The notes beneath the pieces were generated by a model. It made no database searches, was not told the DNA's origin, and was given only the letters and a program-made list of their open reading frames with translations. 12,923 nucleotides of DNA, taken from NCBI GenBank assembly GCA_030453005.1, contig JAKDLE010000022.1, positions 1 to 12,923 on the forward strand, read 5' to 3'. The translations under genes and the position numbers were made by a program. The stretch is from Pseudonocardia sp. (GTDB lineage Bacteria > Actinomycetota > Actinomycetes > Mycobacteriales > Pseudonocardiaceae). Of the stretch, positions 1-10,543 are shown piece after piece (positions within the stretch are counted from its first letter, which is position 1; each line of letters starts with the position of its first letter).

Positions 1-363
1 GGTCGAACCGCTGATCGCTCCCAGCGCCATCCCCGCCGCCTCGGTGTGGACGGCGCCGCGCGCCCTCGCGGGGGTGTGCACGGCGACCGGCTCGGCGTCG
101 CCCGCGTGCTCGACGAAGTGCCCGATGGGCCGGTCGAACGCCGCCGCGAGCTTGAGCAGCGTGGTGATCGTCGGGACCATGTCGCCCCGCTCCACCTTGT
201 GGATCGCCGCGGCGGAGACCCCCGCCCGTTGGGCGAGCTGCTGCAGCGACAGGCCGAGCTGCTGGCGCAGATCGCGCACCTTGGGCCCGATCGCTCCGAC
301 GATCGGTTCCCATGCCCCCCGGGCGTTCGTCGGGCCGCGCGAGTCCGATGGGGCGACGGCCAT
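1..363 (-). CDS. XRE-family HTH transcriptional regulator, C-terminus cut off by window edge
   Basis: The minus strand is open from an ATG at 363 to the left edge, giving 121 codons with no stop, so the 3' end is missing. After a 20-residue polar leader, residues about 21-85 form a Cro/C1-type helix-turn-helix domain: LRQQLGLSLQQLAQRAG, then VSAAAIHKVERG (positions 49-60), then a PTITTLLKLAAAF helix. Residues 86-121 (EHAGDAEPVAVHTPARAR) look like the linker that leads into a cupin sensor domain in XRE-cupin regulators, but that domain lies outside the window. An AAGGAGG ribosome site (complement of 368-374) is 4 bases before the ATG. The gene is divergent from the oxidoreductase at 481 and shares its promoter region, so local regulation of the nitrile-hydratase operon and autoregulation are likely but inferred. 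The HTH call is firm; the ligand is unknown. Confidence 0.88.
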   Translation of the reverse strand, partial: MAVAPSDSRGPTNARGAWEPIVGAIGPKVRDLRQQLGLSLQQLAQRAGVSAAAIHKVERGDMVPTITTLLKLAAAFDRPIGHFVEHAGDAEPVAVHTPARARGAVHTEAAGMALGAISGST

Positions 364-372
364 TGACCCTCC

Positions 373-400
373 TTGACAGCGTGATCGCGAACAGTATAGT
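373..400 (+). promoter_or_regulatory. Probable sigma-A-type promoter of the oxidoreductase/nitrile hydratase operon
   Basis: A perfect TTGACA (373-378) is followed after 16 bases by TATAGT (395-400). This places a transcription start near 407 and leaves a leader of about 74 bases before the GTG at 481. The -35 overlaps the ribosome site of the divergent XRE gene. On the minus strand the same TATA core gives TATACT (complement of 393-398), so the divergent promoters may share a -10 region. Just downstream, GTGA-N7-TCAC (400-414 region) is an imperfect inverted repeat that could be an operator. Only the sequence match is seen; activity is inferred. Confidence 0.6.
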
Positions 401-480
401 GAATCTTCGTCACATATGGTGGACGATCTGCCGACCGTTCGCCGGCTAGTGAACCTGGATCGCGGAAAGAGGGGTTCGTC

Positions 481-1878
481 GTGCCTCGCAAGACGGTGAT
501 CATCGGTGGTGGGGCTGCGGGCCTCGGCTCCGCGGGCGGGGTCAAGGCGGCCGATCCCGAGGCCGACGTCGTCGTCTACACACAGTACGAGGACGTCGCC
601 TACAGCCCGTGCGGCATCCCGTACGTGCACGGCGGCGAGATCCCCGACTTCGAGCGGCTGTTCCTGGCAGGCAAGCAGGCCTACGTCGACGCGGGCATCG
701 ACGTGCACTACGAGACCGAGGTCACCGCGATCGACACCGCGGCGAAGACGGTCACGGTCACGGGCGAGGGCGTGGTCCCGTACGACAACCTGATCATCGC
801 GACCGGCTGGAACTACGCCGACCCCGGCGTCCCCGGCGGTGATCTCGGCGGCCTGTACTACGTCAAGAACATCCGCAAGGCCATGGAGTGGGACAAGGTC
901 ATCTCCGAGACGAAGAGCGCGGTGGTCGTCGAGGCCGGCCCGCTCGGCCTGGAGATGGTGACGGCGCTGGCGCACCGCGGCGTCGAGACGCACCTGATCG
1001 ACCCGAGCCCCTACGCACTGTCGATGATGGCCGACCCCGACATCATGGCCCCGGTCGAGGAGTCCTGGCGCGAGCTGGGCGTGCACCTGCACTTCAACAC
1101 GACTCTGGAGGCCTTCATCGGTGGGAGTGATGGCCTGGGCGACGCCGACGGCAAGGTCCGCGCGGTCCGGACCTCCGGGGGCGAGATCGCGGCCGACCTC
1201 GTGGTCATCTCCACCCACAAGACGCCCGAGAACACGCTCGCGAAGGCGGCCGGGATCAAGCTCGGCTCCACCGGCGGCATGATCGTCGACGAGCGGATGA
1301 AGACCTCCGCCCCGAACGTGTGGGGGGCGGGCGACGTCGTCGAGATCCCGCACGGCCTCACCCGCACGCCGCTGCAGGGCCTCACCGGGTCGCACGCCTA
1401 CGCCCAGGGCAAGACGGCGGGCACCAACGCAGGCGGCGGCGACCGTACGTACCGCGCCGTCTACGTGCCGTGGGGCACGCCCGCGGGCAAGTGGGTGATC
1501 GGTGGCGCCTCCTTCGGCGAGGCCACCGCCACCGCGCTGGGCATCCCCTACGTCAAGGGCGAGGCGCAGGGCATCTCCCGCGCCCGCTACTACCCGGACG
1601 TGCAGCCGGTGAAGGTCAAGCTGCTCGCCGAGCCGGGCACGCTGCGGCTGATCGGAGCCCAGATGGTCGGCGGCGGCGAGGGCATCAAGGAACGCGCCGA
1701 CTTCCTCGCCCAGGCCATCCGCTTCGGCATGACGCTGCACGACCTCTCGACGATGGAGAACGTCTACTCGCCCGCCATCGGTGCGCTGAACGAGCCGATC
1801 GTCGTGGCCGCCACCAACGGCGTCGCCTCCGCGCGGAGCGCAGGCGGAGCGCGCATCGAGACAGCGAGGAAGGCCTGA
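481..1878 (+). CDS. FAD/NAD(P)-dependent pyridine nucleotide-disulfide oxidoreductase (CoA-disulfide reductase/NADH oxidase-like)
   Basis: This 465-residue flavoprotein starts at GTG 481, with GGAAAGAGGGG (464-474) 6 bases upstream. The FAD-binding motif GGGAAG lies at residues 9-14. Cys44 in YSPCGIPY matches the single redox cysteine of the CoA-disulfide reductase/NADH oxidase/peroxidase group. ATG at 107-109 and APNVWGAGDVVEI near 277-289 are the expected FAD signatures. The NAD(P)-binding loop is odd: residues 148-157 read VVVEAGPLGL, with Glu where the first glycine of GxGxxG is normal. A C-terminal dimerisation domain follows (about 325-465), and the last 20 residues look like a low-complexity tail. 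It leads the operon ending in nitrile hydratase. It could recycle a thiol or disulfide, or supply electrons to a partner; the substrate cannot be read from the sequence. Family is certain, specific activity is not. Confidence 0.9.
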   Translation: MPRKTVIIGGGAAGLGSAGGVKAADPEADVVVYTQYEDVAYSPCGIPYVHGGEIPDFERLFLAGKQAYVDAGIDVHYETEVTAIDTAAKTVTVTGEGVVPYDNLIIATGWNYADPGVPGGDLGGLYYVKNIRKAMEWDKVISETKSAVVVEAGPLGLEMVTALAHRGVETHLIDPSPYALSMMADPDIMAPVEESWRELGVHLHFNTTLEAFIGGSDGLGDADGKVRAVRTSGGEIAADLVVISTHKTPENTLAKAAGIKLGSTGGMIVDERMKTSAPNVWGAGDVVEIPHGLTRTPLQGLTGSHAYAQGKTAGTNAGGGDRTYRAVYVPWGTPAGKWVIGGASFGEATATALGIPYVKGEAQGISRARYYPDVQPVKVKLLAEPGTLRLIGAQMVGGGEGIKERADFLAQAIRFGMTLHDLSTMENVYSPAIGALNEPIVVAATNGVASARSAGGARIETARKA

Positions 1879-1881
1879 GCA

Positions 1882-2142
1882 ATGAGTTCTTTCTTCGGCT
1901 GGCTGCGCCGCAACTCCGAGCACTATCTCCTCGTCGCCGCCCACCAGAAGCTCGCGCGGACGCAGGGCTCGCCTGCGCCGCGGCCGCCGAAGGGCCTCAA
2001 GGAGACGTTCTGGCTGCGGATCTTCGCACCGACGTACGCGGTGCTGCCGTGGCCCGTCCGAAGCAGGATCATGCGAGCGATGCCGGGCAGCCACCGGCAG
2101 ACCTGGGCGCCACCGCCCCGACCCCAAGGACCCGCGGTCTGA
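1882..2142 (+). CDS. Small very basic hypothetical protein
   Basis: This 86-residue protein is not recognised. It starts at ATG 1882, 3 bases after the preceding stop, with GAGGAAGG (about 1863-1870) upstream. By count it has 10 Arg and 3 Lys against 2 Glu and no Asp. Residues 1-27 look like an amphipathic helix (FFGWLRR, then HYLLVAAHQKLAR). A Pro/Lys-rich linker (about 30-40) leads to an aromatic-hydrophobic segment with arginines (TFWLRIFAPTYAVLPWPVR, about 42-60), and the tail is Pro-rich. There is no clear transmembrane helix or signal peptide. It could bind the membrane surface, nucleic acid or an acidic partner. Tight placement between the flavoprotein and the Sll0783-family gene, plus mostly G/C third positions, argue that it is a real gene. 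An opposite-strand open frame of similar length exists but has no such context. Confidence 0.65.
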   Translation: MSSFFGWLRRNSEHYLLVAAHQKLARTQGSPAPRPPKGLKETFWLRIFAPTYAVLPWPVRSRIMRAMPGSHRQTWAPPPRPQGPAV

Positions 2143-2184: not shown

Positions 2185-2670
2185 GTGGCTCAGATCACCG
2201 GCGAGCGGCCCACCGAGGGCGACGTCATCGTCGACTACGACGAGAAGCTCTTCGAGGACATCCAGGCGAACGAGGGCGAGAAGGCCTACATCTTCATGCA
2301 CACCGTGCCGTTCGAGGGCTCGGTCGGGTTCGTCAACATGCTCACCGCCACCCGGATCAACCGCAAGGGCTTCGACACCAGCCTGGTGCTCTTCGGCCCG
2401 GGCGTGCTGATGGCGTCGGCCACTCGCGGCTTCCCGACCGTCGGGGCCGAGGCGTTCCCCGGCCACATGAACTTCAACAACCAGCTCAAGACGTTCATGA
2501 AGGAGGGCGGGAAGGTCTACGCGTGTCGCTTCGCGATGGCCGCGCTCTACGGCATGCGTGAGTCCGACGTGATCGAGGGCGTCCAGCCGATGCACCCGCT
2601 CGACGTGCTCGACGCCACCCTGACGGCCCGCCGCGACGGCGCACTCGTCATCCAGACCTGGACGGTCTGA
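2185..2670 (+). CDS. MSMEG_0572/Sll0783-family nitrogen starvation response protein
   Basis: This 161-residue protein starts at GTG 2185, with AAGGAG (2172-2177) 7 bases upstream. It resembles the Sll0783/MSMEG_0572 family: an N-terminal [14 protein letters not shown] segment, [20 protein letters not shown] (about 34-53), [11 protein letters not shown] (67-77), and [20 protein letters not shown] (104-123) with the sole cysteine, Cys114. The overall plan suggests a small DsrE-like fold with a cysteine at the end of a strand; that is inferred. In Synechocystis, Sll0783 is induced by nitrogen starvation and is needed for normal polyhydroxybutyrate accumulation. The family is a hallmark of the Nit1C cluster, where the next gene normally encodes a nitrilase. 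Here the next genes encode nitrile hydratase. Its biochemical role is unknown. Confidence 0.88.
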
Positions 2671-2683
2671 GCCGTAGCCAGAC

Positions 2684-2730
2684 CCGACGGGGCGGGCCGT
2701 CCGCGGCGACCGGAGGTCCCGCCCCATCGG
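2684..2730 (+). promoter_or_regulatory. Strong GC hairpin between the Sll0783-family gene and nthB
   Basis: Bases 2684-2696 pair with 2718-2730 in 12 of 13 positions: CCGA, one C/A mismatch, then GGGGCGGG against CCCGCCCC and TCGG, around a 21-base loop (2697-2717) that can form smaller pairs. It fills most of the 90-base gap between genes on the same strand. There is no T-run after it, so it is not a standard intrinsic terminator. It may be a partial terminator, an RNA stabiliser or processing site that sets nitrile hydratase level apart from the upstream genes, or an attenuator. The structure is seen in the sequence; its function is inferred. Confidence 0.5.
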
Positions 2731-2760
2731 TCACCCACCGCCCGGGAGGCGAGGGAGACG

Positions 2761-3429
2761 ATGGGCAGCATCGCCCAGATGGGCGGCACCGACGGCTGGG
2801 GGCGCGCGAGCGCGCCGACGCTCGACGAGCCGGTGTTCGCCGAGTCGTGGGAGGGCCGCGCGTTCGCGATGACCCTCTTGACGATGGGACGGATCTCGGG
2901 GCGCAACCTCGACTCGTTCCGGCACGCGCTGGGGAGCCTGTCCCGCGAGGACTACCTCGACGACGGCTACTACGGGCGGTGGCTCAACGCGGCCGAGCTG
3001 ATGCTCACCGAGAGCGCGATCCTCGCTCCCGGCGCCGTGGACGCCCGCGTCCGCGCCAACCGGGGCGAGCAGGTCGACGAGCCACCCGCCCCCGAGCAGG
3101 ACGCCAAACCCGACTACAAGCCCACCGCCGCCGGGTCACTGCGCACCGTCGAGGACCCGCCGCGGTTCGCCGTCGGCGATCGCGTCGCGGCGAAGGACGT
3201 CGACCCGACCGGGCACACCCAGCTGGTCGGCTACCTGCGCGGGCGCACCGGGGCCGTCACGATCATCCAACCGGCCGCGCTGCTCCCCGACACCCACGCC
3301 CACTTCGAGGGCGAGAACCCCCAGCACGTCTACGCGGTGGCGTTCGACTCCCGCGAGCTCTGGGGGCCCGACGCGGAGGCGTTCACGCTCACCGCCGACC
3401 TGTACGACAGCTACCTGGAGCCGGCATGA
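2761..3429 (+). CDS. nthB: Nitrile hydratase beta subunit
   Basis: This 222-residue subunit starts at ATG 2761 after purine-rich GGAGGCGAGGGAG. The N-terminal helical domain (1-100) has the expected GG..GWG start (8-14), [15 protein letters not shown] (26-40), FRHALGSL (53-60, with Arg54 in the position of the active-site-contacting Arg of the family) and [10 protein letters not shown] (70-79). A charged Pro/Glu linker (about 100-130) leads to the SH3-like barrel: [25 protein letters not shown] (151-164) and [12 protein letters not shown] (197-208). The usual GHTR.P.Y motif is altered to GHTQ.V.Y, so a commonly conserved Arg is Gln154; Arg160 is kept. With the alpha subunit it should hydrate nitriles to amides in the cytoplasm. 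The order beta-alpha-accessory is typical of cobalt enzymes. Its stop overlaps the nthA start by 4 bases (ATGA). Confidence 0.95.
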
Positions 3430-4010
3430 CCAGCAGCATCAACCCCGACCGCCTCTCCCCGGCGCTGCGCACCGAGGCGCTGGAGCAGCTGCTCACCGAG
3501 CGCGGCCTCGTCGACCCGGCGGTGATGGACAAGTTCATCAGCACCTACGAGAACGACGTGGGCCCGCTCAACGGGGCCAAGGTCGTCGCGAAGGCGTGGA
3601 CGGACCCCGAGTACCGCGCCCGGCTGCTGGCCGAAGGCACCGGTGCGATCAAGGAGCTGGGGTTCGCCGGGCCGCAGGGTGAGCACATCGTGGTGCTCGA
3701 GAACACCGCCGCGCTGCACAACGTGGTGACCTGCACGCTGTGCTCGTGCTATCCGTGGCCGGTACTGGGACTGCCGCCGAGCTGGTACAAGGACCCCGTC
3801 TACCGGGCGCGGATCGTGCGCGAGCCGCGCACGGTGCTCGCCGAGATGGGGCTGGAGCTCGTCGCTGACGTCGAGGTCAAGGTCTGGGACTCCAGCAGCG
3901 AGGTGCGCTACCTCGTGCTGCCGCTGCGCCCCGCGGGCACCGAGGGCGCCTCGGAGGAGGAGCTGACCGCACTCGTCACCCGCGACATGATGGTGGGTGT
4001 GGCCCGGTGA
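3426..4010 (+). CDS. nthA: Nitrile hydratase alpha subunit, cobalt type
   Basis: This 194-residue catalytic subunit carries the metal-claw motif CTLCSC at residues 103-108 (Cys103, Cys106, Ser107, Cys108) followed by [16 protein letters not shown]. Threonine after the first cysteine marks the cobalt class; iron enzymes have CSLCSC. In this family the second and third cysteines are oxidised after translation to sulfinic and sulfenic acids. The N-terminal [13 protein letters not shown] and [22 protein letters not shown] segments, and [14 protein letters not shown] near 128-144, are all as expected. Thiocyanate hydrolase gamma shares the claw motif, but the unsplit 222-residue beta partner favours nitrile hydratase. 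The start overlaps the end of nthB (ATGA) and the end overlaps the accessory gene (GTGA), so the three are probably translationally coupled. Substrate unknown; no amidase is in the window. Confidence 0.96.
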
Positions 4011-4372
4011 GCACCCCGCTCCTGGGGATCGACGGGCCCGCGGCCCCTCCGCGCGACAACGGCGAGCTGGTGTTCGCCGAGCCGTGGGAGAGCCGGGCGT
4101 TCGGCCTCGCCGTCACCCTGCACGCCGCGGGCGCCTTCACCTGGGACGACTTCCGCGACCACCTCGTCGCCCGCATCGCCGACTGGGAGCGGTCGCATCC
4201 CGACGGGGAGTGCTACAGCTACTACCGCTGCTGGCTCCAGGCGCTGGAGTCGGTGGTGGCCGACCGCGGCCTGGTGGGCGCGGGCGAGGTCGCGGTCCGC
4301 GCGGGTGAGCTCGCCGAGCGCCCCGCGGGCCACGACCACGCCGACGGCGCGGACCACGGCCACGGCCACTGA
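4007..4372 (+). CDS. Nitrile hydratase accessory protein (cobalt-site activator) with His-rich tail
   Basis: This 121-residue protein starts at GTG 4007, overlapping the nthA stop by 4 bases. Residues 20-55 ([19 protein letters not shown], then [10 protein letters not shown]) match the beta-subunit N-terminal domain and the small activator family (P14K/NhlE-like). [13 protein letters not shown] at 69-81 is the characteristic activator motif. The last 13 residues, [14 protein letters not shown] region (109-121), hold five His alternating with Asp/Gly, a plausible cobalt-binding tail. These accessory proteins deliver cobalt to, or exchange it into, the alpha subunit and help oxidise its cysteines. 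It ends this transcription unit, facing the convergent glycosyltransferase gene 36 bases away. No cobalt transporter is visible in the window. Confidence 0.92.
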
Positions 4373-4382
4373 CCCACCGGCT

Positions 4383-4406
4383 CCGTCGCCTGATTCGGGC
4401 GAACGG
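4383..4406. terminator. Possible bidirectional hairpin between convergent operons
   Basis: CCGTCGCC (4383-4390) can pair with GGCG (4398-4401) and ACGG (4403-4406), giving 8 pairs with one bulged A and a 7-base loop. It lies in the 36-base gap between the nitrile hydratase accessory gene (plus) and the glycosyltransferase gene (minus), so it could stop or insulate both transcripts. There is no T-run on either strand, so it is weak as an intrinsic terminator. Confidence 0.35.
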
Positions 4407-4408
4407 GG

Positions 4409-5569
4409 TCAGCGGCGGCGGGCCGCCCGCACGTCGGCGTAGACCTCGCGGTGCCGCGCCGCGCTCGCGGCCCAGGTGAACCGCTTCGCCACGGCCCGGC
4501 CGCCGACCCGCAGCCGGTCGCGCAGCGCGTCGTCGTCCACCATTCGACGCAGGGCCACGGCGAGTGCGGCGCTGTCCCCGACAGCGGGCAGGAGCGCGTC
4601 GCGGCCGTCGGTGAGGTACTCGCCGAAGACCGGCAGGTCGCTGGCGACCACGGGCAGGTCCATGCTCAGCGCCTCGAGCACGACGAGCCCCCAGCCCTCT
4701 TTCACCGACGGGAAGGCGAGCGCGTCGGCCGCGGAGTACCAGCCGGCGAGCTCGGCCTCGTCGACGGTGCCGAGCTCCACCACGTCGACGCCGAGCTCCA
4801 GGCCCAGAGACGGCAGTGCGGCGAGCGCGGCGTCGCGGTAGGCGGTGTAGTCCTGGAACGAGTGCCCGCCCACGACGGCCAGCATCGGCGGTCGGTCCGA
4901 CCCGGCCACCAGCTCACCCAGCGCCTCGAACAGGTGGTGGCTGCCCTTGCGCGGTTCGACGCCGCCCACGGCGAGGAACAGGAAGCGGTCCCCGGCGCCG
5001 ATCCGGGCGCGGAGCCCGGCGCGCCGCTCGGCCGTGACGGTCGGGAACCGCGCCAGGTCGACACCGTTGGGCACCACCTCGGGCAGCACGCCGTAGTCGT
5101 CGCGCAGGATCCGACGCCACTGCTCACTCACCACGAGCACGCGGTCCGGCTCGTGGATCGCCCGGGCCTGGCAGTCGATCAGCGCCGGGGTCGTGAAGTC
5201 GTCGACGTGGTGGACGGTGCGCACCACGGTGACCGGGGCGCCCTCCCCGCGCACCGCGACCGCGGCCCGCGCGGAGATGCAGTCCTGCGGGTGCAGGATG
5301 TCGAACCCGCACGCGAGACCGCGCAGACCCTCGGTGAGGGCGTCGATCGCGGCGAACACCCGCTCGTCGAGGGTGCCCGCCCGCTCGCGCGCCGGCACGA
5401 TCGTGTGCGGCACGTCGACCGGGCGGAAGAACCCCGCCGCCGGGTCGCCGAGCGTCACGACGTGCACGGGATAGCCCTCGCGGTGCAGCTGCTCGGCCAG
5501 ACACAGGGTGTGCACGACGCCGCCGCGGGGCTTGGTCGAGTACGTCAGCAGCGCCACGCCGCGCGTCAC
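4409..5569 (-). CDS. MSMEG_0565-like family 4 glycosyltransferase
   Basis: This 386-residue GT-B fold protein starts at GTG 5569, overlapping the fdrA stop by 4 bases. The N-terminal Rossmann half has ALLTYSTKPRGGVVHTLCLAEQL (6-28, acceptor side, with the GG loop) and DILHPQDCIS (90-99). The C-terminal half has VPNGVDLARFP (166-176), LAVGGVEPRKGSHHL (199-213, donor phosphate loop), LAFPSVKEGWGLVVLEAL (284-301) with the E-x7-E pair Glu291/Glu299 of retaining GT4-type enzymes, and VVASDLPVFGEYL (307-319). It resembles the MSMEG_0565 family, which occurs in actinobacterial Nit1C clusters, so it probably glycosylates the cluster's product or a related carrier. Sugar donor and acceptor are unknown. 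It is last in the minus-strand unit. The same frame stays open upstream to 7027, antiparallel in meaning to fdrA, but homology begins only here, so a fusion is not supported. Confidence 0.88.
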   Translation of the reverse strand: MTRGVALLTYSTKPRGGVVHTLCLAEQLHREGYPVHVVTLGDPAAGFFRPVDVPHTIVPARERAGTLDERVFAAIDALTEGLRGLACGFDILHPQDCISARAAVAVRGEGAPVTVVRTVHHVDDFTTPALIDCQARAIHEPDRVLVVSEQWRRILRDDYGVLPEVVPNGVDLARFPTVTAERRAGLRARIGAGDRFLFLAVGGVEPRKGSHHLFEALGELVAGSDRPPMLAVVGGHSFQDYTAYRDAALAALPSLGLELGVDVVELGTVDEAELAGWYSAADALAFPSVKEGWGLVVLEALSMDLPVVASDLPVFGEYLTDGRDALLPAVGDSAALAVALRRMVDDDALRDRLRVGGRAVAKRFTWAASAARHREVYADVRAARRR

Positions 5570-7122
5570 ACCGGCCTGCCCACGAGGTCGGGGTCGCGGC
5601 GGACGATCGCGGCGGCGGCGAGCGCGGCGCGCGCCGCGGTGTCGGTGACGACGCAGCCCGCCTCGGTGAACACCCGGCGCTGCGCCTCGAACCCCTGCGG
5701 GTCCTGGTCGGTGCCCAGCACGTAGACGACGATCCGCGGGCCCCCACCCGCGATGATGTCCGCGCACACCGGGGCCAGCTCGCCCGCCGGGTCGGGGTGT
5801 GAACCGTGGCCGAGCACCACGTCGAGCACGATCACGGCCACGTCCGGGTCGGCGCCGTCGGACCGCAGCCACTCCAGCCGCGCCTCGGGGTCGATCATCG
5901 GGTGCGGGCGCCCCAAGGTGTACTCCTCCTCGCCCAGATCCAGGCAGGAGTGGGCGCCCGCCGGGGCGGGCAGGCCGAGTGCGGAGTCGACCGGGGTGTT
6001 GGAGTGCACGTCGCCCAGCGCGCCCGCGAGGATCACCAGCGCCTCGTAGCAGAGCGTGCCGCCGGAGTAGAGGCCGCGCAGCAGCGTCCGGCTCTCCGGG
6101 AGCTCGGCGACCGCGGCCGCCACCGCCTCGCGCAGACCGTCCGTCGGGTCGGGGGCGGTGCGGCCCAGCGACTCCAGCGCGCGCACGACACCGGTCTCCA
6201 GCGACCCGGCGAGCGTGACGCCCTCGGGGACGTCGGTCCCCCCCGCGTAGATCTCCGTGGGGTCGAGCCCGATGAGCGCGGCCACCACCGGCTTCCCCGA
6301 CGCCGCGGCGAGCACGGAGCGCGCGACGTCGACGTCCGGCGGCTTCGACACCAGCAGCACCACCTCGGTGGCGTCGTCGTCGCGCAGTGCCATGAGCGCG
6401 GTGCGCGCCATGATGCCGCCCACGGCGGCGGAGAGGTCGCGGCCGCCGAGGCCGATGACGTGCGAGACGCCGACGCCCCAGCGGTCGAGCAGGCTCGCGG
6501 CCTCCTGCGCGCCGGTGCCCGCGGCGGCCACGACGGCGACCGGGCCCGGCGTGACCACGTTGGCGAACCCCAGGCAGGTGCCGCCGAGCATCGCCGTACC
6601 CGCACCGGGGCCCATGAGGAGCAGCCCCAGCCCGGCGGCCCGCTCCTTGAGGTCCACCTCGGCCTCGACGGAGACGTTGTCGCTGAACAGCAGCACGTGC
6701 AGGCCCGCGGTGAGGGCCTGGTGGGCCTCCAGCGCCGCGTAGTCGCCGGGCACCGACACCACGGCCACCGAGCTGTCCGGGGCCAGCTCGCATGCCTCGC
6801 GCACCGAGCGGGCGCTGCGCCGCGCGGTGTCGGCGGCGCCCCCGGAGCCCGGGGCGAACATCGCCTTCTCGCCCGCGGCGACGGCCTCGGCCACCACCTC
6901 GTCGGACTCCCCGCGGACCGCGATGAACAGGTCGCCCGCGCCCGCGCCGTCCCAGTCGGCGGCGTCGAAACCCGCCGACCCGAGGGTCTCCAGGTTGGCT
7001 GGGGTGGCCATCGCCGCCGACGCCCACTCGACGCCGTCGACCGCACGCATCGTGCGTGTACCGGACAGCTGGACGACCGAGTCCAGGTAGGTGTCGCGGT
7101 ACACGGTGACCCGGTGCTTCAC
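5566..7122 (-). CDS. fdrA: FdrA-family protein (acyl-CoA synthetase-like; oxamate carbamoyltransferase subunit homologue)
   Basis: This 518-residue protein starts at GTG 7122, overlapping the carbamate kinase stop by 4 bases (GTGA). It matches E. coli FdrA (AllF-type) from memory: N-terminal YRDTYLDSVVQLSG (8-21) and GESDEVVAEAV; then MGPGAGTAMLGG (170-181), LGFANV (184-189), AAAGTGAQE (199-207), HVIGLGGRDLS (221-231) and VVLLVSKPP (254-262), the succinyl-CoA-synthetase-alpha-like half. LLRGLYSGGTLCYEA (347-361) and YTLGRPHPMIDP (401-412) mark the ligase-like half. In E. coli, FdrA with YlbE and YlbF is reported to form oxamate carbamoyltransferase, which makes carbamoyl phosphate from oxalurate, with carbamate kinase alongside. 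Here the extra C-terminal ~50 residues of the E. coli protein are missing, and so is a DUF1116 (YlbE) gene. The substrate may therefore differ. Confidence 0.9.
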   Translation of the reverse strand: MKHRVTVYRDTYLDSVVQLSGTRTMRAVDGVEWASAAMATPANLETLGSAGFDAADWDGAGAGDLFIAVRGESDEVVAEAVAAGEKAMFAPGSGGAADTARRSARSVREACELAPDSSVAVVSVPGDYAALEAHQALTAGLHVLLFSDNVSVEAEVDLKERAAGLGLLLMGPGAGTAMLGGTCLGFANVVTPGPVAVVAAAGTGAQEAASLLDRWGVGVSHVIGLGGRDLSAAVGGIMARTALMALRDDDATEVVLLVSKPPDVDVARSVLAAASGKPVVAALIGLDPTEIYAGGTDVPEGVTLAGSLETGVVRALESLGRTAPDPTDGLREAVAAAVAELPESRTLLRGLYSGGTLCYEALVILAGALGDVHSNTPVDSALGLPAPAGAHSCLDLGEEEYTLGRPHPMIDPEARLEWLRSDGADPDVAVIVLDVVLGHGSHPDPAGELAPVCADIIAGGGPRIVVYVLGTDQDPQGFEAQRRVFTEAGCVVTDTAARAALAAAAIVRRDPDLVGRPV

Positions 7123-8102
7123 GCCGTCACCCCGACCGTGGTGGAGGCCGCGGCGACGATGCGGGTGCCGGTGTGTGGAGGCACGTCACCGCCCGGCTCC
7201 TCGGCGAGCGTGGCGCGGACCCGGCCGGTGTCGGTGATCACGGCGACCCGCCCGCCGTGCCGGACGAACTCGATCGCGGCACTCATCTTCGGCCCCATGC
7301 TGCCGGGCGGGAACTGGCCGTCGTCGAGGTGGGACTGGGCCTCGTCGACGGTCATCGCGGAGATCGAGCGCTGCCGGTCGGTGCCGAAGTCCAGCGCGAC
7401 GCGGTCGATGTCGGTGATGAGGACGAGCGCGTCGGCGCCGAGCGCGGTGGCCATCAGTCGCGCGGTGAGGTCCTTGTCGACCACCCCGTCGACGCCGTGG
7501 TACCCGTCGGCGTCCTCGACGACGGGGACGCCGCCGCCTCCGCCTGCGATCACGACCATGTGCTGCTCGACCAGCGCGCGCACGGCGTCGATCTCGAGGA
7601 TGCGCCGGGGCCGCGGGGAGGCGACGATCTGGCGGTAGCCGCGTCCGGAGTCCTCCACGATGCTCCAGCCGCGCTCCGCCGCGAGGCGCTCCGCCTCGTC
7701 CTTCGCGAAGAACGGCCCGATCGGTTTCGTCGGGTGGTCGAAGGCGGGGTCGTCCGCGTCGACGACGACGTGGGTCACCATCGACACCACCGGCTGCGGG
7801 GTCTCCGCGACCTGGTGCAGCGCCACCACGAGCAGCGTGCCGAGCTGGCCCTGCGTCATGGCGCCCTGGACGAACAGGGGGAGCGCGGGCACCTCGTCGG
7901 CGGCCTCGTGCTGCTGGATCGCGAGGTTGCCCACCTGCGGGCCGTTGCCGTGCACGACGACGACGACCCAGCCCGCGTCGTGCAGCTCGCAGATCGCGGT
8001 GGCCATGGAGCGGGCGTTGTCGGCCTGCTCGGCGTGCGTGCCTGCCTGACCGGCACGGGTGATGGCGTTGCCTCCGAGTGCGACGACAGCGATCCTCGGC
8101 AT
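7119..8102 (-). CDS. arcC: Carbamate kinase
   Basis: This 327-residue enzyme starts at ATG 8102, with GGGGAG (complement of 8110-8115) 7 bases upstream. It carries the amino-acid-kinase signatures of carbamate kinase: VVALGGNAITRAGQ near the start, VVVVHGNGPQVGNLA, PTKPIGPFF, VIAGGGGGVPVVED, GVVDKDLTARLMATALGADALVLITDI (the KDL.A.LA region) and FPPGSMGPKMSAAIEFV. It should convert carbamoyl phosphate and ADP to carbamate and ATP, carbamate then breaking down to ammonia and CO2. No arginine deiminase or ornithine carbamoyltransferase is nearby; instead fdrA follows directly, which points to an oxamate/ureido-type carbamoyl donor as in the E. coli allantoin locus. An in-frame extension upstream to 8822 is antisense to another gene and shows no homology, so it was not used. 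It leads the minus-strand unit. Confidence 0.95.
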   Translation of the reverse strand: MPRIAVVALGGNAITRAGQAGTHAEQADNARSMATAICELHDAGWVVVVVHGNGPQVGNLAIQQHEAADEVPALPLFVQGAMTQGQLGTLLVVALHQVAETPQPVVSMVTHVVVDADDPAFDHPTKPIGPFFAKDEAERLAAERGWSIVEDSGRGYRQIVASPRPRRILEIDAVRALVEQHMVVIAGGGGGVPVVEDADGYHGVDGVVDKDLTARLMATALGADALVLITDIDRVALDFGTDRQRSISAMTVDEAQSHLDDGQFPPGSMGPKMSAAIEFVRHGGRVAVITDTGRVRATLAEEPGGDVPPHTGTRIVAAASTTVGVTA

Positions 8103-8159
8103 GTGCGAGCTCCCCAGGCGACGGTTGTCCACGACGTACAGGATGATGATGGTCGATCC

Positions 8160-8167
8160 ACTATAGT
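8160..8167. promoter_or_regulatory. Palindromic -10 (ACTATAGT) shared by divergent promoters
   Basis: ACTATAGT reads the same on both strands, giving TATAGT at 8162-8167 on plus and at 8160-8165 on minus. Its centre (8163.5) is almost exactly midway between the divergent starts at 8102 and 8226, which predicts leaders of about 50 bases on each side. No good TTGACA -35 is seen at the expected distance on either strand, so an activator may be needed. The plus-strand continuation TTGACGTTCG resembles the bases after the other two TATAGT copies (TATAGT, 6-7 bases, TTC). Promoter function is inferred. Confidence 0.5.
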
Positions 8168-8225
8168 TGACGTTCGCGGTGAGGAACCAGGGCGAGGGAC
8201 CCAGAACGAAAGGACGGAGAGCGAC

Positions 8226-8819
8226 GTGCACGGTGGGGCAGGACGGGAGGTCGAGGCCGCGGCCCAGGCCCGGTGGCGCGCCGCGGAGGACCGGCTCTAC
8301 CCGATGGCGATGAGCGACCCGGACGGCTACCGCCGGGCGCTGGAGGCCGTGCAGGTCCTCGTCGACGAGCTGCGCCGCACCGCCTCCACGTTCGACGAGC
8401 TGCTGGCCGTCGAGGCGGACCCGACGCCGCTGCTGGCCGCGCTGCCCGCGGGTCCGGCGCTGTCGCCCGACCTCCTGGTGCAGGCCGCGTGCGGATCCCG
8501 CGGTCGGGAGCTCGGGGTCGCCCGGGAGGGTGCCCGCCGCGCGGCCGCCGTCGCCGCCGCACGCGCCGAGGGACGTGCCTGGGTGGTGCTGGAGGGCCCG
8601 GAGCGGATCGGGGAGCTGGTCGGCGGCAGGACCGTCGCCACCCACCTGTCCACCGGCCGTACGCTCATGGCCGTGCTCGACCCCTACTCCGGGGCAGACC
8701 CCTTCGGTCTGCAGGAGTTCGACGCGGACGGGGAACCGGGTCGCGACCGCATGCTCGCCGACCGCGACGAGTGGGTCACCGAGTGGGACCGGTGGCGCAC
8801 GGAGATCGAGTCCTCTTGA
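8226..8819 (+). CDS. Hypothetical protein, unrecognised family
   Basis: This 197-residue protein is not recognised. The start chosen is GTG 8226, because GGACGGAGA (8212-8220) lies 5 bases upstream and the TATAGT element lies about 58 bases upstream. The frame stays open far upstream, but that part is antisense to carbamate kinase. Residues 1-55 are predicted mostly helical (EAAAQARWRAAEDRLYPMAM, then YRRALEAVQVLVDELRR). A Pro/Leu-rich middle and an Ala/Arg-rich helix (about 95-115) lead to a mixed alpha/beta end with RAWVVLEGPERIGELVGG, LSTGRTLMAVLDPYSGADPF and an acidic, Trp-containing C-terminus (DEWVTEWDRWRTEIE). There are no membrane segments or signal peptide. It leads the unit containing the radical SAM and acetyltransferase genes, so it probably belongs to the same process. 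Its stop codon lies within a TTGACA (8816-8821). Confidence 0.75.
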   Translation: MHGGAGREVEAAAQARWRAAEDRLYPMAMSDPDGYRRALEAVQVLVDELRRTASTFDELLAVEADPTPLLAALPAGPALSPDLLVQAACGSRGRELGVAREGARRAAAVAAARAEGRAWVVLEGPERIGELVGGRTVATHLSTGRTLMAVLDPYSGADPFGLQEFDADGEPGRDRMLADRDEWVTEWDRWRTEIESS

Positions 8820-8837
8820 CAATTCCGCGGCGGGGAG

Positions 8838-8868
8838 TCTCCTATGAGATATGGCCGCTCCCTATAGT
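8838..8868 (+). promoter_or_regulatory. Probable promoter and operator before the radical SAM gene
   Basis: The 78-base gap before the radical SAM gene is unusually A/T-rich for this window. TATAGT (8863-8868) in CCCTATAGTGAATACTTCC resembles the copies at 395 and 8162. TCTC-CTAT-GAGA (8838-8849) is a perfect inverted repeat covering the place where its -35 would lie (8840-8845), and no TTGACA is there, so an activator or repressor site is plausible. A separate TTGACA (8816-8821) overlaps the upstream stop, but a matching -10 (TATGAG at 8843) is 21 bases away. The predicted leader is about 23 bases. Function is inferred from sequence only. Confidence 0.45.
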
Positions 8869-8897
8869 GAATACTTCCTCGGCGGGTGGAGTCACGG

Positions 8898-10067
8898 ATG
8901 AGTACTGAGCTCAGCGCAGGTTCGGCGGTCGACGTCACCTCACTGATCATCGAGCTGCAGAGCGCAGGCCTGCGCGTCGAGGCGCCGGTGGAGTCGCGCC
9001 GCGGCGGCGCGGGGCCGTCGGACTCCGGGATGCTGTGGATCGAGGGCATCCCCGCCACGGTGCCCTTGCAGACCGGGCCCACCCAGACCGACGACGCCCG
9101 CAGCTCGCCCTACGTGCTCAAGGCCGAGGACGACGGACAGGGTATCTACCGCGACGGCATCAAGCTGGCCTCGGTCGCGGCGAGCCACCGGCCCCGGTTC
9201 TACGACATGACCACGGCGGACGGGGTGCCGTACTGGAAGATCGCCCTGCTGCACCTCGACTCGCTGGCCAGCACCGTGCTGCAGACCTGCAACTACTGGG
9301 GCAACTCCGACCAGTGCCGGTTCTGCGGGATCGGCGTGTCGCTCGACTCGGGCAACACGATCGCGAAGAAGACCCCGGCGCAGCTCGCCGAGGTGGCGGT
9401 GGCGGCACGCGACCTCGACGGGGCCGTCGACGCCACCCTCACCACCGGGAGCACCCGGGCCCCCGACCGCGGCGCGCTCTACGTCGCCGAGTGTGGCCGT
9501 GCGGTCAAGGAGGCCTCCGGGCTGCCGGTCGAGGTGCAGTTCGAGCCGCCCCACGACCTGGCCGTGCTCGACCGCGTCCACGGCGCGGGCGTCGACGCGG
9601 TCGGGATCCACGTGGAGTCGTTCGACCCGGCGGTCCTCGCGCACGTCGCGCCGGGCAAGTTCCGCACCGGCATCGAGACCTACTTCCGCACGTGGGAGCG
9701 CGCCGTCGAGCTGTTCGGCGCGGGCCGGGTGTCCACCTACGTCATCCTCGGGATGGGGGAGGACCCCGACCTCACGATCGCCGCGTGCAAGCGCGCCGTC
9801 GAGATCGGCGTGTACCCGTTCGTGGTGCCGCTGCGGCCCGTGGCGGGCTCACTCATGGAGGAGGTCGCCCCTCCCACCGCGGAGTACACCGAGCGCGTCT
9901 ACCGCAAGGTCGCGGGTTACCTCACCGAACGGGGCATCGGCGCCGACACCGCCGTGGCCGGGTGCGTGCGCTGCCAGGCCTGCTCGGGGATCAACGGGCT
10001 GCAGAACGAGCTCAGCGGAGGTAAGCCGCTGCTGCAGATCGGGTCGCGACCGGCCGGCCTGTCGTGA
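8898..10067 (+). CDS. MSMEG_0568-like radical SAM protein
   Basis: This 389-residue protein starts at ATG 8898, with GGTGGAG ending 7 bases upstream; an in-frame GTG at 8886 is part of that ribosome site. The putative 4Fe-4S site is Cys131, Cys140 and Cys143, in QTCNYWGNSDQCRFCGIG, a CX8CX2C spacing rather than the usual CX3CX2C. The core barrel continues with VDATLTTGSTRAPDRG (177-192), VEVQFEPPHDLAVLDR (211-226) and VDAVGIHVESFDPAVL (232-247), much as in the biotin-synthase-like group. A C-terminal CVRCQAC (356-362, CX2CX2C) could bind a second cluster. It resembles the MSMEG_0568/Sll0785 family found in Nit1C clusters. The reaction it catalyses is not known to me. It overlaps the acetyltransferase gene by 4 bases (GTGA), and there is no sign of truncation. 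Confidence 0.9.
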   Translation: MSTELSAGSAVDVTSLIIELQSAGLRVEAPVESRRGGAGPSDSGMLWIEGIPATVPLQTGPTQTDDARSSPYVLKAEDDGQGIYRDGIKLASVAASHRPRFYDMTTADGVPYWKIALLHLDSLASTVLQTCNYWGNSDQCRFCGIGVSLDSGNTIAKKTPAQLAEVAVAARDLDGAVDATLTTGSTRAPDRGALYVAECGRAVKEASGLPVEVQFEPPHDLAVLDRVHGAGVDAVGIHVESFDPAVLAHVAPGKFRTGIETYFRTWERAVELFGAGRVSTYVILGMGEDPDLTIAACKRAVEIGVYPFVVPLRPVAGSLMEEVAPPTAEYTERVYRKVAGYLTERGIGADTAVAGCVRCQACSGINGLQNELSGGKPLLQIGSRPAGLS

Positions 10068-10543
10068 CGCGGGCGGTGGAGGCGCGGGCCCAGGTCTCCT
10101 GCCGCCTCGCCGCGCCCGGGCCCGACCTGGCCGCCCATCACCGCGTGCGGCACCAGGTGTTCGTCACCGAGCAGCAGATCTTCGTCCACGGCGACCGGGA
10201 CGACCGGGACGACGACCCGGCCACGTTGCACGTGCTGGGGCTGGTCGACGGCGAGCCGGCGGGAACCGTGCGGCTCTACCCGCTCGACGACGGCCCGGAG
10301 CCGACCCGGTGGCAGGGCGACCGGCTCGCGGTGCTGGCCGCCCATCGCACCTCCGGACTGGGCGGGCCGCTGGTGCGTTTCGCCGTGGCCACCGCCGGGG
10401 CGCTGGGGGGCGCGACGATGCTCGCCCACGTGCAGCAGGCCAACGAGCGGTTCTTCGTGCGCCTCGGCTGGACCAGCCTCGGGAACGAGGACTACGTCGG
10501 TCGTCCGCACGTGCGGATGGAGATCGCGCTCAGCGCTCCCTGA
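10064..10543 (+). CDS. MSMEG_0567/Sll0786-like GNAT N-acetyltransferase
   Basis: This 159-residue protein starts at GTG 10064, overlapping the radical SAM stop by 4 bases. It has the GNAT layout: HHRVRHQVFVTEQQIF (25-40), GEPAGTVRLYPL (63-74), the acetyl-CoA loop RTSGLG (95-100, matching RxxGxG) followed by a helix, and ANERFFVRLGWTSLG (126-140) near the end. Order and type match the sll0785-sll0786 pair of the Nit1C cluster, in which the next gene would normally encode an AIR-synthase-related protein. That gene is absent here; instead a convergent ATPase gene overlaps the last 14 bases. The acyl acceptor is unknown but probably is, or derives from, the product of the radical SAM protein. Confidence 0.88.
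   Translation: MTRAVEARAQVSCRLAAPGPDLAAHHRVRHQVFVTEQQIFVHGDRDDRDDDPATLHVLGLVDGEPAGTVRLYPLDDGPEPTRWQGDRLAVLAAHRTSGLGGPLVRFAVATAGALGGATMLAHVQQANERFFVRLGWTSLGNEDYVGRPHVRMEIALSAP

What the first reader, a model, noticed from the sequence alone, without database searches (positions are those of the whole stretch)
2185..10543. Nit1C-type nitrogen-starvation locus with nitrile hydratase in place of nitrilase
Four families characteristic of the Nit1C cluster are present (Sll0783-like, radical SAM, GNAT, MSMEG_0565 glycosyltransferase). No Nit1 nitrilase, AIR-synthase-like or MSMEG_0569/0570 gene is visible. In the usual order the nitrilase follows the Sll0783-family gene; here a complete cobalt nitrile hydratase (beta, alpha, accessory) occupies that place. 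This looks like replacement of one nitrile-converting enzyme by an unrelated one, which would change the product from acid plus ammonia to amide.
Basis: partly seen in the sequence, partly recalled or inferred. Interest (0 to 1): 0.75.

Follow-up and report, generated by a model that had tools for sequence, protein, structure and literature searches.

The report
Nitrile hydratase coenzyme-M nitrogen gene cluster
This stretch of bacterial DNA holds part of a conserved gene set in which a nitrile-hydrating enzyme sits with genes that seem to make the unusual cofactor coenzyme M and to recover nitrogen and ATP from carbamoyl groups, a combination I did not find described.

Summary
Sll0783-family, radical SAM, GNAT and MSMEG_0565 genes flank a complete cobalt-type nitrile hydratase directly after the Sll0783 gene. 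This is not Nit1C with one enzyme swapped but part of a distinct variant, seen in Pseudonocardia, other actinobacteria, Acidobacteria, alphaproteobacteria and Desulfovibrio-type bacteria. The variant lacks the Nit1C flavoprotein and has a CoA-disulfide-reductase-like enzyme, FdrA/AllG/AllH (oxamate-carbamoyltransferase family), carbamate kinase and coenzyme M biosynthesis genes. FdrA and carbamate kinase lie in the window. AllG/AllH and coenzyme M genes lie just past the window's end in the three nearest relatives, but were not found in the window's own 72%-complete genome. The nitrile slot is exchangeable: of 71 resolved named loci, 42 have nitrile hydratase, 23 an amidohydrolase-2 protein (AmdH), 3 true Nit1 nitrilase, 3 both of the first two. 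On a supported tree AmdH goes opposite to NHase in 6 of 7 independent pairs (p = 0.03). Proposed mechanism (inferred): nitrile to carbamoyl group to carbamoyl phosphate to ATP, ammonia and CO2, with coenzyme M as carrier thiol.

The parts
1..363 (-). XRE-type transcriptional regulator, cut by the contig end; an intact relative carries HTH + cupin
   Evidence: gene call; ortholog L050:12003-12614 hits HTH_3 and Cupin_2 (28); profile hit 161 bits
373..400 (+). sigma-70-like promoter TTGACA-N16-TATAGT upstream of the flavoenzyme gene
   Evidence: conserved in an alignment of 13 upstream regions; coordinates
395..423 (+). two operator-like words TATRGTGRA (395-403 and 415-423)
   Evidence: 4 copies in the window, 0.01 expected
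481..1878 (+). FAD-dependent oxidoreductase of the CoA-disulfide/persulfide reductase family (FADox)
   Evidence: TIGR03385 245 bits, below cut-off 578.8 (4); PDB relatives include CoA-persulfide reductase and CoA-disulfide reductase
1882..2142 (+). small conserved protein (86 aa), no family
   Evidence: gene call; ortholog in 68 of 80 named loci; no Pfam family over cut-off
2185..2670 (+). MSMEG_0572/Sll0783 family protein, DsrE-like, with a cysteine invariant in all 144 sequences aligned (124 distinct)
   Evidence: TIGR04044 238 bits; DsrE; cysteine
2761..3429 (+). nitrile hydratase beta subunit
   Evidence: TIGR03888 164 bits; PDB
3426..4010 (+). nitrile hydratase alpha subunit, CTLCSC
   Evidence: TIGR01323 297 bits; PDB
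4007..4372 (+). nitrile hydratase accessory protein
   Evidence: TIGR03889 78 bits
4409..5569 (-). MSMEG_0565 family glycosyltransferase
   Evidence: TIGR04047 356 bits; start from gene call
5566..7122 (-). FdrA/AllF-like protein (oxamate carbamoyltransferase subunit family, succinyl-CoA-synthetase-like)
   Evidence: PRK06091 414 bits, cut-off 433 (4); PDB 3dmy FdrA 260 bits
7119..8102 (-). carbamate kinase
   Evidence: TIGR00746 352 bits, cut-off 358; PRK12352 295 bits, over cut-off 266 (4)
8157..8165 (-). operator-like word TATAGTGGA upstream of the kinase-FdrA-glycosyltransferase unit
8304..8819 (+). conserved protein without a family, upstream of the radical SAM gene
8863..8871 (+). operator-like word TATAGTGAA upstream of the radical SAM gene
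8886..10067 (+). radical SAM protein, MSMEG_0568 family
   Evidence: TIGR04043 382 bits
10064..10543 (+). GNAT acetyltransferase, MSMEG_0567/Sll0786 family
   Evidence: TIGR04045 109 bits
10530..12890 (-). AAA-ATPase/TPR protein, possibly a regulator; neighbour in 26 of 80 named loci
   Evidence: Pfam AAA_16, TPR_12 (24); synteny

Best explanation
The window holds about half of a conserved nitrogen-scavenging cluster, a variant of Nit1C built around coenzyme M (CoM) and carbamoyl phosphate. SHOWN by comparison: the gene set in relatives, its conservation, the exchange of NHase, AmdH and Nit1 in one slot, and operator-like words at three promoters in the window. INFERRED: the shared Nit1C genes (Sll0783-like, radical SAM, GNAT, AIR-synthase-like, glycosyltransferase) present a C-N triple bond; NHase hydrates it to a carboxamide or carbamoyl group; FdrA/AllG/AllH phosphorolyse the carbamoyl group to carbamoyl phosphate; carbamate kinase turns that into ATP, ammonia and CO2. 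CoM is the small thiol of the pathway, possibly carrying the cyano/carbamoyl group as CoM-S-CN and then CoM-S-CONH2. The CoA-disulfide-reductase-like flavoenzyme and the DsrE-like Sll0783 protein would handle its disulfide or persulfide. Flavoprotein-type Nit1C of the same genus would release the same group by hydrolysis with its paired CN-hydrolases.
For: XcbA occurs in 16 of the 17 genomes with the variant Sll0783 gene and in 4 of the other 43 (60 genomes, the window's included; p = 5e-10). 54 of 80 named loci have at least one CoM gene in the fetched stretch. Of 17 named genomes searched whole, 16 had no XcbA in the stretch and 11 of these 16 have a match elsewhere. In 7 of 10 Pseudonocardia genomes the only ComA is the one in this cluster; in P. 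hydrocarbonoxydans the only XcbA, with XcbD/E, is on another contig, so the pathway is split. Slot exchange. NHase also stands in for AmdH beside flavoprotein-type Nit1C in G002 and G026 (L056, L063). FdrA resembles PDB FdrA and then succinyl-CoA synthetase alpha, a family that phosphorolyses thioesters (recalled); AllFGH makes carbamoyl phosphate in E. coli (PMC11326118, abstract and passages). A CoA-disulfide reductase gene lies beside CoM genes in vinyl-chloride clusters (PMC8727900, passages). Operator-like words.
Against: No AllG, ComA or XcbA was found in the window's own genome (72% complete). CoM enzymes of the variant score below NCBIfam equivalog cut-offs: XcbC 433 and 423 of 575, XcbE 232 of 450, XcbD 599.1 of 600, ComA 229 of 280, so the product may be a relative of CoM. 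Five genomes with the variant Sll0783 gene (three Desulfovibrio-type, L172, L191) gave no XcbA. Three loci carry both NHase and AmdH; AmdH also occurs away from the cluster in three more NHase-type genomes (L136, L162, L174) and an unlike NHase away from it in two AmdH-type genomes (L122, L180). The known AllFGH substrate is N-carbamoyl, not S-carbamoyl. No transporter is among the six unlabelled families that recur in 5 or more loci. The operator-like word is absent from 17 of 27 variant loci. The Sll0783+FADox tree has long branches and a doubtful join. Nothing biochemical was tested.
Confidence: 0.4

Rival explanations
1. The carbamoyl group is N-linked: NHase hydrates a cyanamide-like N-C-N triple bond to a ureido compound, FdrA/AllG/AllH release carbamoyl phosphate as in allantoin breakdown, and CoM serves only redox or thiol protection.
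For: The AllFGH reaction shown in E. coli is with oxalurate, an N-carbamoyl compound (PMC11326118). The paired CN-hydrolases of a flavoprotein-type locus resemble N-carbamoylputrescine amidase (L055). Desulfovibrio-type loci keep AmdH and All genes without XcbA.
Against: Does not explain why CoM synthesis genes are built into the cluster in several phyla.
Confidence: 0.25
2. One reading: plain replacement of Nit1 nitrilase by NHase for organic nitriles, giving amides that an amidase elsewhere hydrolyses.
For: Nit1 holds the slot in three alphaproteobacterial loci of the variant; NHase is the usual nitrile-to-amide enzyme (recalled).
Against: AmdH is the commoner alternative; FdrA and carbamate kinase point to carbamoyl phosphate; no amidase is among the unlabelled families recurring in 5 or more loci; two unlike backgrounds exist.
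Confidence: 0.15
3. A biosynthetic cluster: radical SAM, AIR-synthase-like, GNAT and glycosyltransferase make a small molecule or cofactor; NHase, AmdH or Nit1 and AllFGH are late tailoring steps, and CoM or a relative is a building block.
For: The enzyme classes suit cofactor synthesis (inference); XcbC and XcbE are diverged; the nickel-pincer cofactor gene larC lies next to 12 of 80 named loci, the Pseudonocardia ones.
Against: Carbamate kinase speaks for breakdown; Nit1C is linked to growth on cyanide in Pseudomonas (PMC11049912, passages).
Confidence: 0.15

Closest known systems
Nit1C cluster (Podar et al. 2005, PMC1199592; nit1C of Pseudomonas, PMC11049912; passages of both)
   Same: Sll0783 protein, radical SAM, GNAT, glycosyltransferase; AIR-synthase-like in relatives; a nitrile-converting enzyme in the same slot
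   Different: No MSMEG_0569 flavoprotein and, in the window, no nitrilase; adds a CoA-disulfide-reductase-like flavoenzyme, FdrA, carbamate kinase and an XRE regulator, and in relatives AllG/AllH, CoM genes and OsmC
Cobalt-type nitrile hydratases (e.g. 3qxe, 1ire)
   Same: alpha and beta align over nearly their whole length, CTLCSC claw
   Different: Embedded in the variant cluster; beta chains of five off-cluster NHases (L239, L240, L242-L244) score 144-173 on a profile built from cluster chains, on which 56 full-length cluster-type chains (50 distinct) score 320-411
Oxamate carbamoyltransferase AllFGH with carbamate kinase of E. coli (PMC11326118)
   Same: FdrA/AllF, AllG, AllH and kinase families
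   Different: Combined with NHase/AmdH/Nit1, CoM genes and Nit1C genes; substrate unknown. A study of nitrifiers reports allFGHK, nit1 and nthA in ammonia-oxidising archaea as separate pathways and does not mention coenzyme M or Nit1C (PMC12625717, passages)
Bacterial CoM biosynthesis of vinyl-chloride/alkene degraders (xcb genes; PMC8727900, passages)
   Same: ComA/XcbB, XcbA, XcbC, XcbD, XcbE families, with a CoA-disulfide-reductase gene nearby
   Different: XcbA of this cluster scores 312-339 against 379-414 for separate copies in G005, G006, G018, G020 and G023 (one split copy in G017 222); no alkene gene is among the families recurring in 5 or more loci
Amidohydrolase-2 enzymes (3cjp, 2-pyrone-4,6-dicarboxylate hydrolase, gamma-resorcylate decarboxylase, ACMSD, LigJ)
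   Different: By sequence only weak matches in the PDB (none by one sequence; best E 2.5e-6 over 49 residues by profile); predicted here to act on the nitrile step

Membership tests
Nit1C | Sll0783-family protein, radical SAM and GNAT of the cluster's families | tested here: met
   all over curated cut-offs
Nit1C | Nit1 (Nit6803-type) nitrilase | tested here: not met
   none in the window; own genome best 237 of 502.6 on another contig, genome 72% complete
Nit1C | MSMEG_0569 flavoprotein | tested here: not met
   my family profile finds none in the window; own genome not searched for it
Nit1C | AIR-synthase-like protein | tested here: inconclusive
   not in window; just outside in relatives, 249 bits against cut-off 321; own genome not searched for it
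Nit1C | MSMEG_0570 small protein | not tested
   no search with that family was run
Co-type nitrile hydratase | alpha, beta and accessory families over cut-off and cobalt claw CTLCSC | tested here: met
Co-type nitrile hydratase | nitrile-hydrating activity | not testable with these tools
   needs enzyme assay
Thiocyanate hydrolase | gamma subunit over cut-off, split beta chain | tested here: not met
   TIGR03887 190.6 against 291.5; beta chain is one piece
AllFGH oxamate carbamoyltransferase | AllF, AllG and AllH subunits | tested here: inconclusive
   AllF in window, 414 against cut-off 433; AllG and AllH in relatives; no AllG found in own genome
Bacterial CoM biosynthesis | XcbA-E set | tested here: inconclusive
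   complete in relatives, several genes below equivalog cut-offs; XcbA and ComA not found in own genome

The most novel reading that the evidence does not exclude
A coenzyme-M-dependent, ATP-yielding route for cyanide or nitrile nitrogen: CoM-S-CN made by cyanolysis of CoM disulfide or persulfide, hydrated by NHase (or by AmdH as a third, unrelated nitrile-converting enzyme), the carbamoyl group phosphorolysed by an AllFGH homologue, and ATP formed by carbamate kinase. It would be a new role for CoM outside methanogenesis and alkene metabolism.
Probability: 0.22. Interest if true: 0.92.

Novelty: new variant of a known kind. Interest (0 to 1): 0.76.

Why it matters
In 2005 there was no experimental evidence for the function of the Nit1C gene set (PMC1199592, passages); since then only growth on cyanide in Pseudomonas has been tied to it (PMC11049912, passages). 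A natural variant in which the end steps are replaced by enzymes of better-known chemistry narrows what the shared steps can do: they should deliver a nitrile or cyano group that ends as a carbamoyl group. It also ties CoM, known in bacteria mainly from alkene metabolism (recalled), to nitrogen recovery in several phyla, and it predicts that an uncharacterised amidohydrolase-2 family converts nitriles. All three are testable in cultured Pseudonocardia.

Tried and rejected
Thiocyanate hydrolase instead of NHase: rejected. FADox as the Nit1C flavoprotein MSMEG_0569: my profile does not hit it. A decayed AmdH beside the NHase cluster of P. parietis: one search listed one TGA inside, which I first noted as an interrupted gene (note); one search shows that it is the normal stop, so this was withdrawn (note). 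Plasmid survey: 515 records match the Sll0783 query; not followed further. PDB search with the Sll0783 protein: one weak hit, DsrE-like, E 0.026. Protein search with NHase beta: 1526 hits, 120 listed, those with a name given all named nitrile hydratase; not used further. Literature: searches pairing coenzyme M with nitrile hydratase (14 papers), coenzyme M with cyanide and carbamoyl phosphate (5 papers) and phosphosulfolactate synthase with nitrile hydratase (1 paper). No listed title or abstract start links them in a gene cluster; one small-molecule crystal note (PMC3393319) is counted as holding both terms in its abstract. I did not read these papers. The 2022 paper on bacterial CoM synthesis is recalled; the cyanotrophy papers of Estepa and of Jones were seen only as references.

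Rows dropped and hand steps: the 17 genomes with the variant Sll0783 gene were sorted by hand; G031 counts by fragments at contig ends and G022 by a gene standing alone, with FADox and CoM genes on another contig (L224). One search merged 7 pairs of identical Sll0783 sequences and left the three NHase+AmdH rows out of the count of changes; L202 bears the label CoM there by default but falls in the flavoprotein clade. One search dropped five duplicate genomes and each locus without both genes. Nine of 80 named loci have no resolved slot: L121, L123, L124, L126, L129, L130, L132, L158, L179. The resolved table (42/23/3/3 of 71) was tallied by hand; for L156 and L144 the AmdH, and for L165 the NHase, lies on another contig of the same genome with cluster genes around it. 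The Fisher value printed for that table treats loci as independent and is not used. The listing was cut in the middle; counts come.


Full report
WHAT IS IN THE WINDOW. The window is the whole of contig G000:C313 (12,923 bases). Gene calls and family scans give: XRE regulator (cut), CoA-disulfide-reductase-like flavoenzyme (FADox), an 86-residue conserved protein, Sll0783/MSMEG_0572, NHase beta, alpha and accessory in a row; MSMEG_0565 glycosyltransferase, FdrA and carbamate kinase on the other strand; then an unassigned protein, radical SAM MSMEG_0568 and GNAT MSMEG_0567; then an AAA/TPR protein. FdrA and carbamate kinase were missed and change the meaning of the locus.

THE SAME LOCUS IN RELATIVES. 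Of 60 genomes (the window's included), 31 have a Sll0783-family match, 29 over cut-off. Fetched neighbourhoods fall into two kinds. One has the MSMEG_0569 flavoprotein and mostly two CN-hydrolases (FMO type). The other is the window's kind. In the three closest relatives (G005, G006, G008) the order is that of the window, and beyond the XRE regulator lie AllH, AllG, XcbC and ComA (with XcbE, XcbD, XcbA in G008), then an AIR-synthase-like gene, OsmC and the nickel-pincer gene larC. Families were named by NCBIfam and Pfam on genes of representative loci: XcbA over cut-off (340 of 150); XcbD 599.1 of 600; XcbC, XcbE and ComA below; AllG and AllH over Pfam cut-offs; AIR-synthase-like 249 of 321.

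HOW WIDE. One scan of named genomes found 159 stretches that encode a relative; the best 80 were kept: Pseudonocardia, Actinomycetospora, Nocardioides, Kribbella, Acidimicrobiia, Acidobacteria, Sphingobium, Methylocystis, Nitrobacter, Ruegeria, Desulfovibrio and others. Profile annotation of the 80: FADox in 69, the 86-residue protein in 68, at least one CoM gene in 54 (ComA 44, XcbA 43, XcbC 47, XcbD 45, XcbE 39), at least one of FdrA/AllG/AllH/ArcC in 55 (43, 32, 25, 38), radical SAM 33, GNAT 47, AIR-synthase-like 21, flavoprotein or paired CN-hydrolases 0. Stretches are at most about 20 kb and many end at contig edges, so counts of presence are lower bounds. CoM genes in loci of the other kind: 0 of 19 from relatives (18 with the flavoprotein), 0 of 15 from Pseudomonadota, 0 of 3 from an even actinobacterial draw. 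In that draw 15 of 296 genomes, the window's included, have the family; of 14 fetched, 10 are of the window's kind by FADox or All genes, 3 FMO type and 1 unclear; 5 of the 10 have Sll0783 sequences identical to named loci. In Pseudomonadota 18 of 398 match, 16 over cut-off: 15 FMO type with Nit1, plus the Sphingobium used as centre, so the variant is rare there.

COENZYME M LINK. Of 17 named genomes searched whole for XcbA, 15 had no CoM gene in their stretch, L177 had XcbC, XcbE and XcbD but not XcbA, and L160 had ComA and XcbA; 12 of 17 have a match, 11 over cut-off; the three Desulfovibrio-type genomes, L172 and L191 do not. ComA occurs only in this cluster in 7 of 10 Pseudonocardia genomes. 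In P. hydrocarbonoxydans (G005) the cluster keeps ComA and XcbC, while XcbA-D-E lie on another contig. In the window's own genome ComA, AllG and XcbA were not found. With 72% completeness and the contig ending at the regulator this does not decide, but the CoM link is not shown for that genome itself.

THE EXCHANGEABLE SLOT. Within the fetched stretches, 41 of 80 named loci have NHase, 20 AmdH, none both, 19 neither (Fisher p = 2e-8, loci not independent). Extension resolved 71: NHase 42, AmdH 23, Nit1 3, NHase and AmdH 3 (P. spinosispora L117, P. parietis L148, P. ammonioxydans L151), 9 open. Whole-genome searches also show AmdH away from the cluster in three NHase-type genomes (L136, L162, L174) and NHase of an unlike kind away from the cluster in two AmdH-type genomes (L122, L180); AmdH was sought in only 27 of the NHase-bearing named genomes or both-types. 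Nit1 scores 557-572 by TIGR04048 in Sphingobium, Methylocystis and Nitrobacter, next to CoM genes and radical SAM. Loci of the other kind show the same exchange: Nit1 in 15 of 15 from Pseudomonadota; AmdH in 8 and NHase in 2 of 19 from relatives, the rest neither in the stretch. On the Sll0783 tree the slot changes at least 14 times over 98 rows. On a better supported Sll0783+FADox tree it changes at least 9 times; of 7 independent pairs on supported branches that differ in NHase, AmdH goes the opposite way in 6, the same way in 0, does not differ in 1 (sign test p = 0.031). On the weaker tree only 4 such pairs exist, p = 0.125. AmdH is an amidohydrolase-2 fold with invariant histidines and aspartate.

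CO-REGULATION. A TTGACA-N16-TATAGT promoter before FADox is conserved in 13 aligned upstream regions, and TATRGTGRA occurs four times in the window against 0.01 expected: twice before FADox, once before the kinase-FdrA unit, once before radical SAM. The word was defined after copies had been seen. It occurs 19 times in 523 kb of 27 variant loci (window included; 17 of the 27 have none, and the two closest relatives supply 7 hits) and once in 523 kb of 27 loci of the other kind.

HOW IT MOST LIKELY WORKS. NHase keeps its claw motif: CTLCSC in 61 and CSLCSC in 3 of 64 alpha chains, off-cluster ones and duplicates included (53 and 2 of 55 distinct). Hydration of a nitrile is the best guess. FdrA is closest in the PDB to FdrA (3dmy), then to succinyl-CoA synthetase alpha; E. 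coli AllFGH makes carbamoyl phosphate (PMC11326118; abstract and passages). Carbamate kinase then gives ATP. The CoM genes, the flavoenzyme family (CoA-disulfide and CoA-persulfide reductases) and the DsrE-like Sll0783 protein with its invariant cysteine (144 of 144 sequences, 124 distinct) suggest thiol chemistry, from which I infer S-cyano- and S-carbamoyl-CoM. That step is a guess; the N-carbamoyl (ureido) rival fits the known AllFGH reaction better. Nit1C in Pseudomonas is tied to cyanide (PMC11049912, passages).

VERDICT. Observation confirmed; interpretation partly supported; a new variant of Nit1C, not found described in the searches listed. Whether the window's own genome has the CoM half is open.

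Noticed in passing
L112:1-1420 and G008/G005 stretches: The nickel-pincer cofactor gene larC (with genes that look by eye like larB and larE) sits beyond the OsmC end of the cluster in 12 of 80 named loci, all Pseudonocardia; stretches of other genera mostly end before that point.
   Followed up: partly
L056, L063 (G002, G026): A cluster-type NHase operon adjoins the MSMEG_0569 flavoprotein gene of FMO-type Nit1C, and AmdH is absent from the 20 kb.
   Followed up: partly
L055:5279-6903: The nitrilase place is held by two N-carbamoylputrescine-amidase-like CN-hydrolases, far from Nit6803 type (37 and 32 of 502.6 bits).
   Followed up: partly
L001 (G000:C902:4491-5405): The window's genome has a non-Nit1 nitrilase (237 bits) beside a gene that looks like an AraC-type regulator.
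   Followed up: no
L123/L125, P. dioxanivorans CB1190: Two copies of the cluster; in one no nthA or nthB was found, though the accessory gene and AllG are there.
   Followed up: no
L187:10485-20406: Desulfovibrionaceae locus with AmdH, AllG, ArcC and FdrA followed by genes that look like glycolate oxidase subunits; no XcbA in that genome.
   Followed up: no
L112:2241-3206: The AIR-synthase-like protein also matches methanogenesis marker 2 (169 bits, cut-off 365).
   Followed up: no
L121, L124, L130: Sll0783 genes standing alone, with none of the profiled cluster genes within 10 kb.
   Followed up: no
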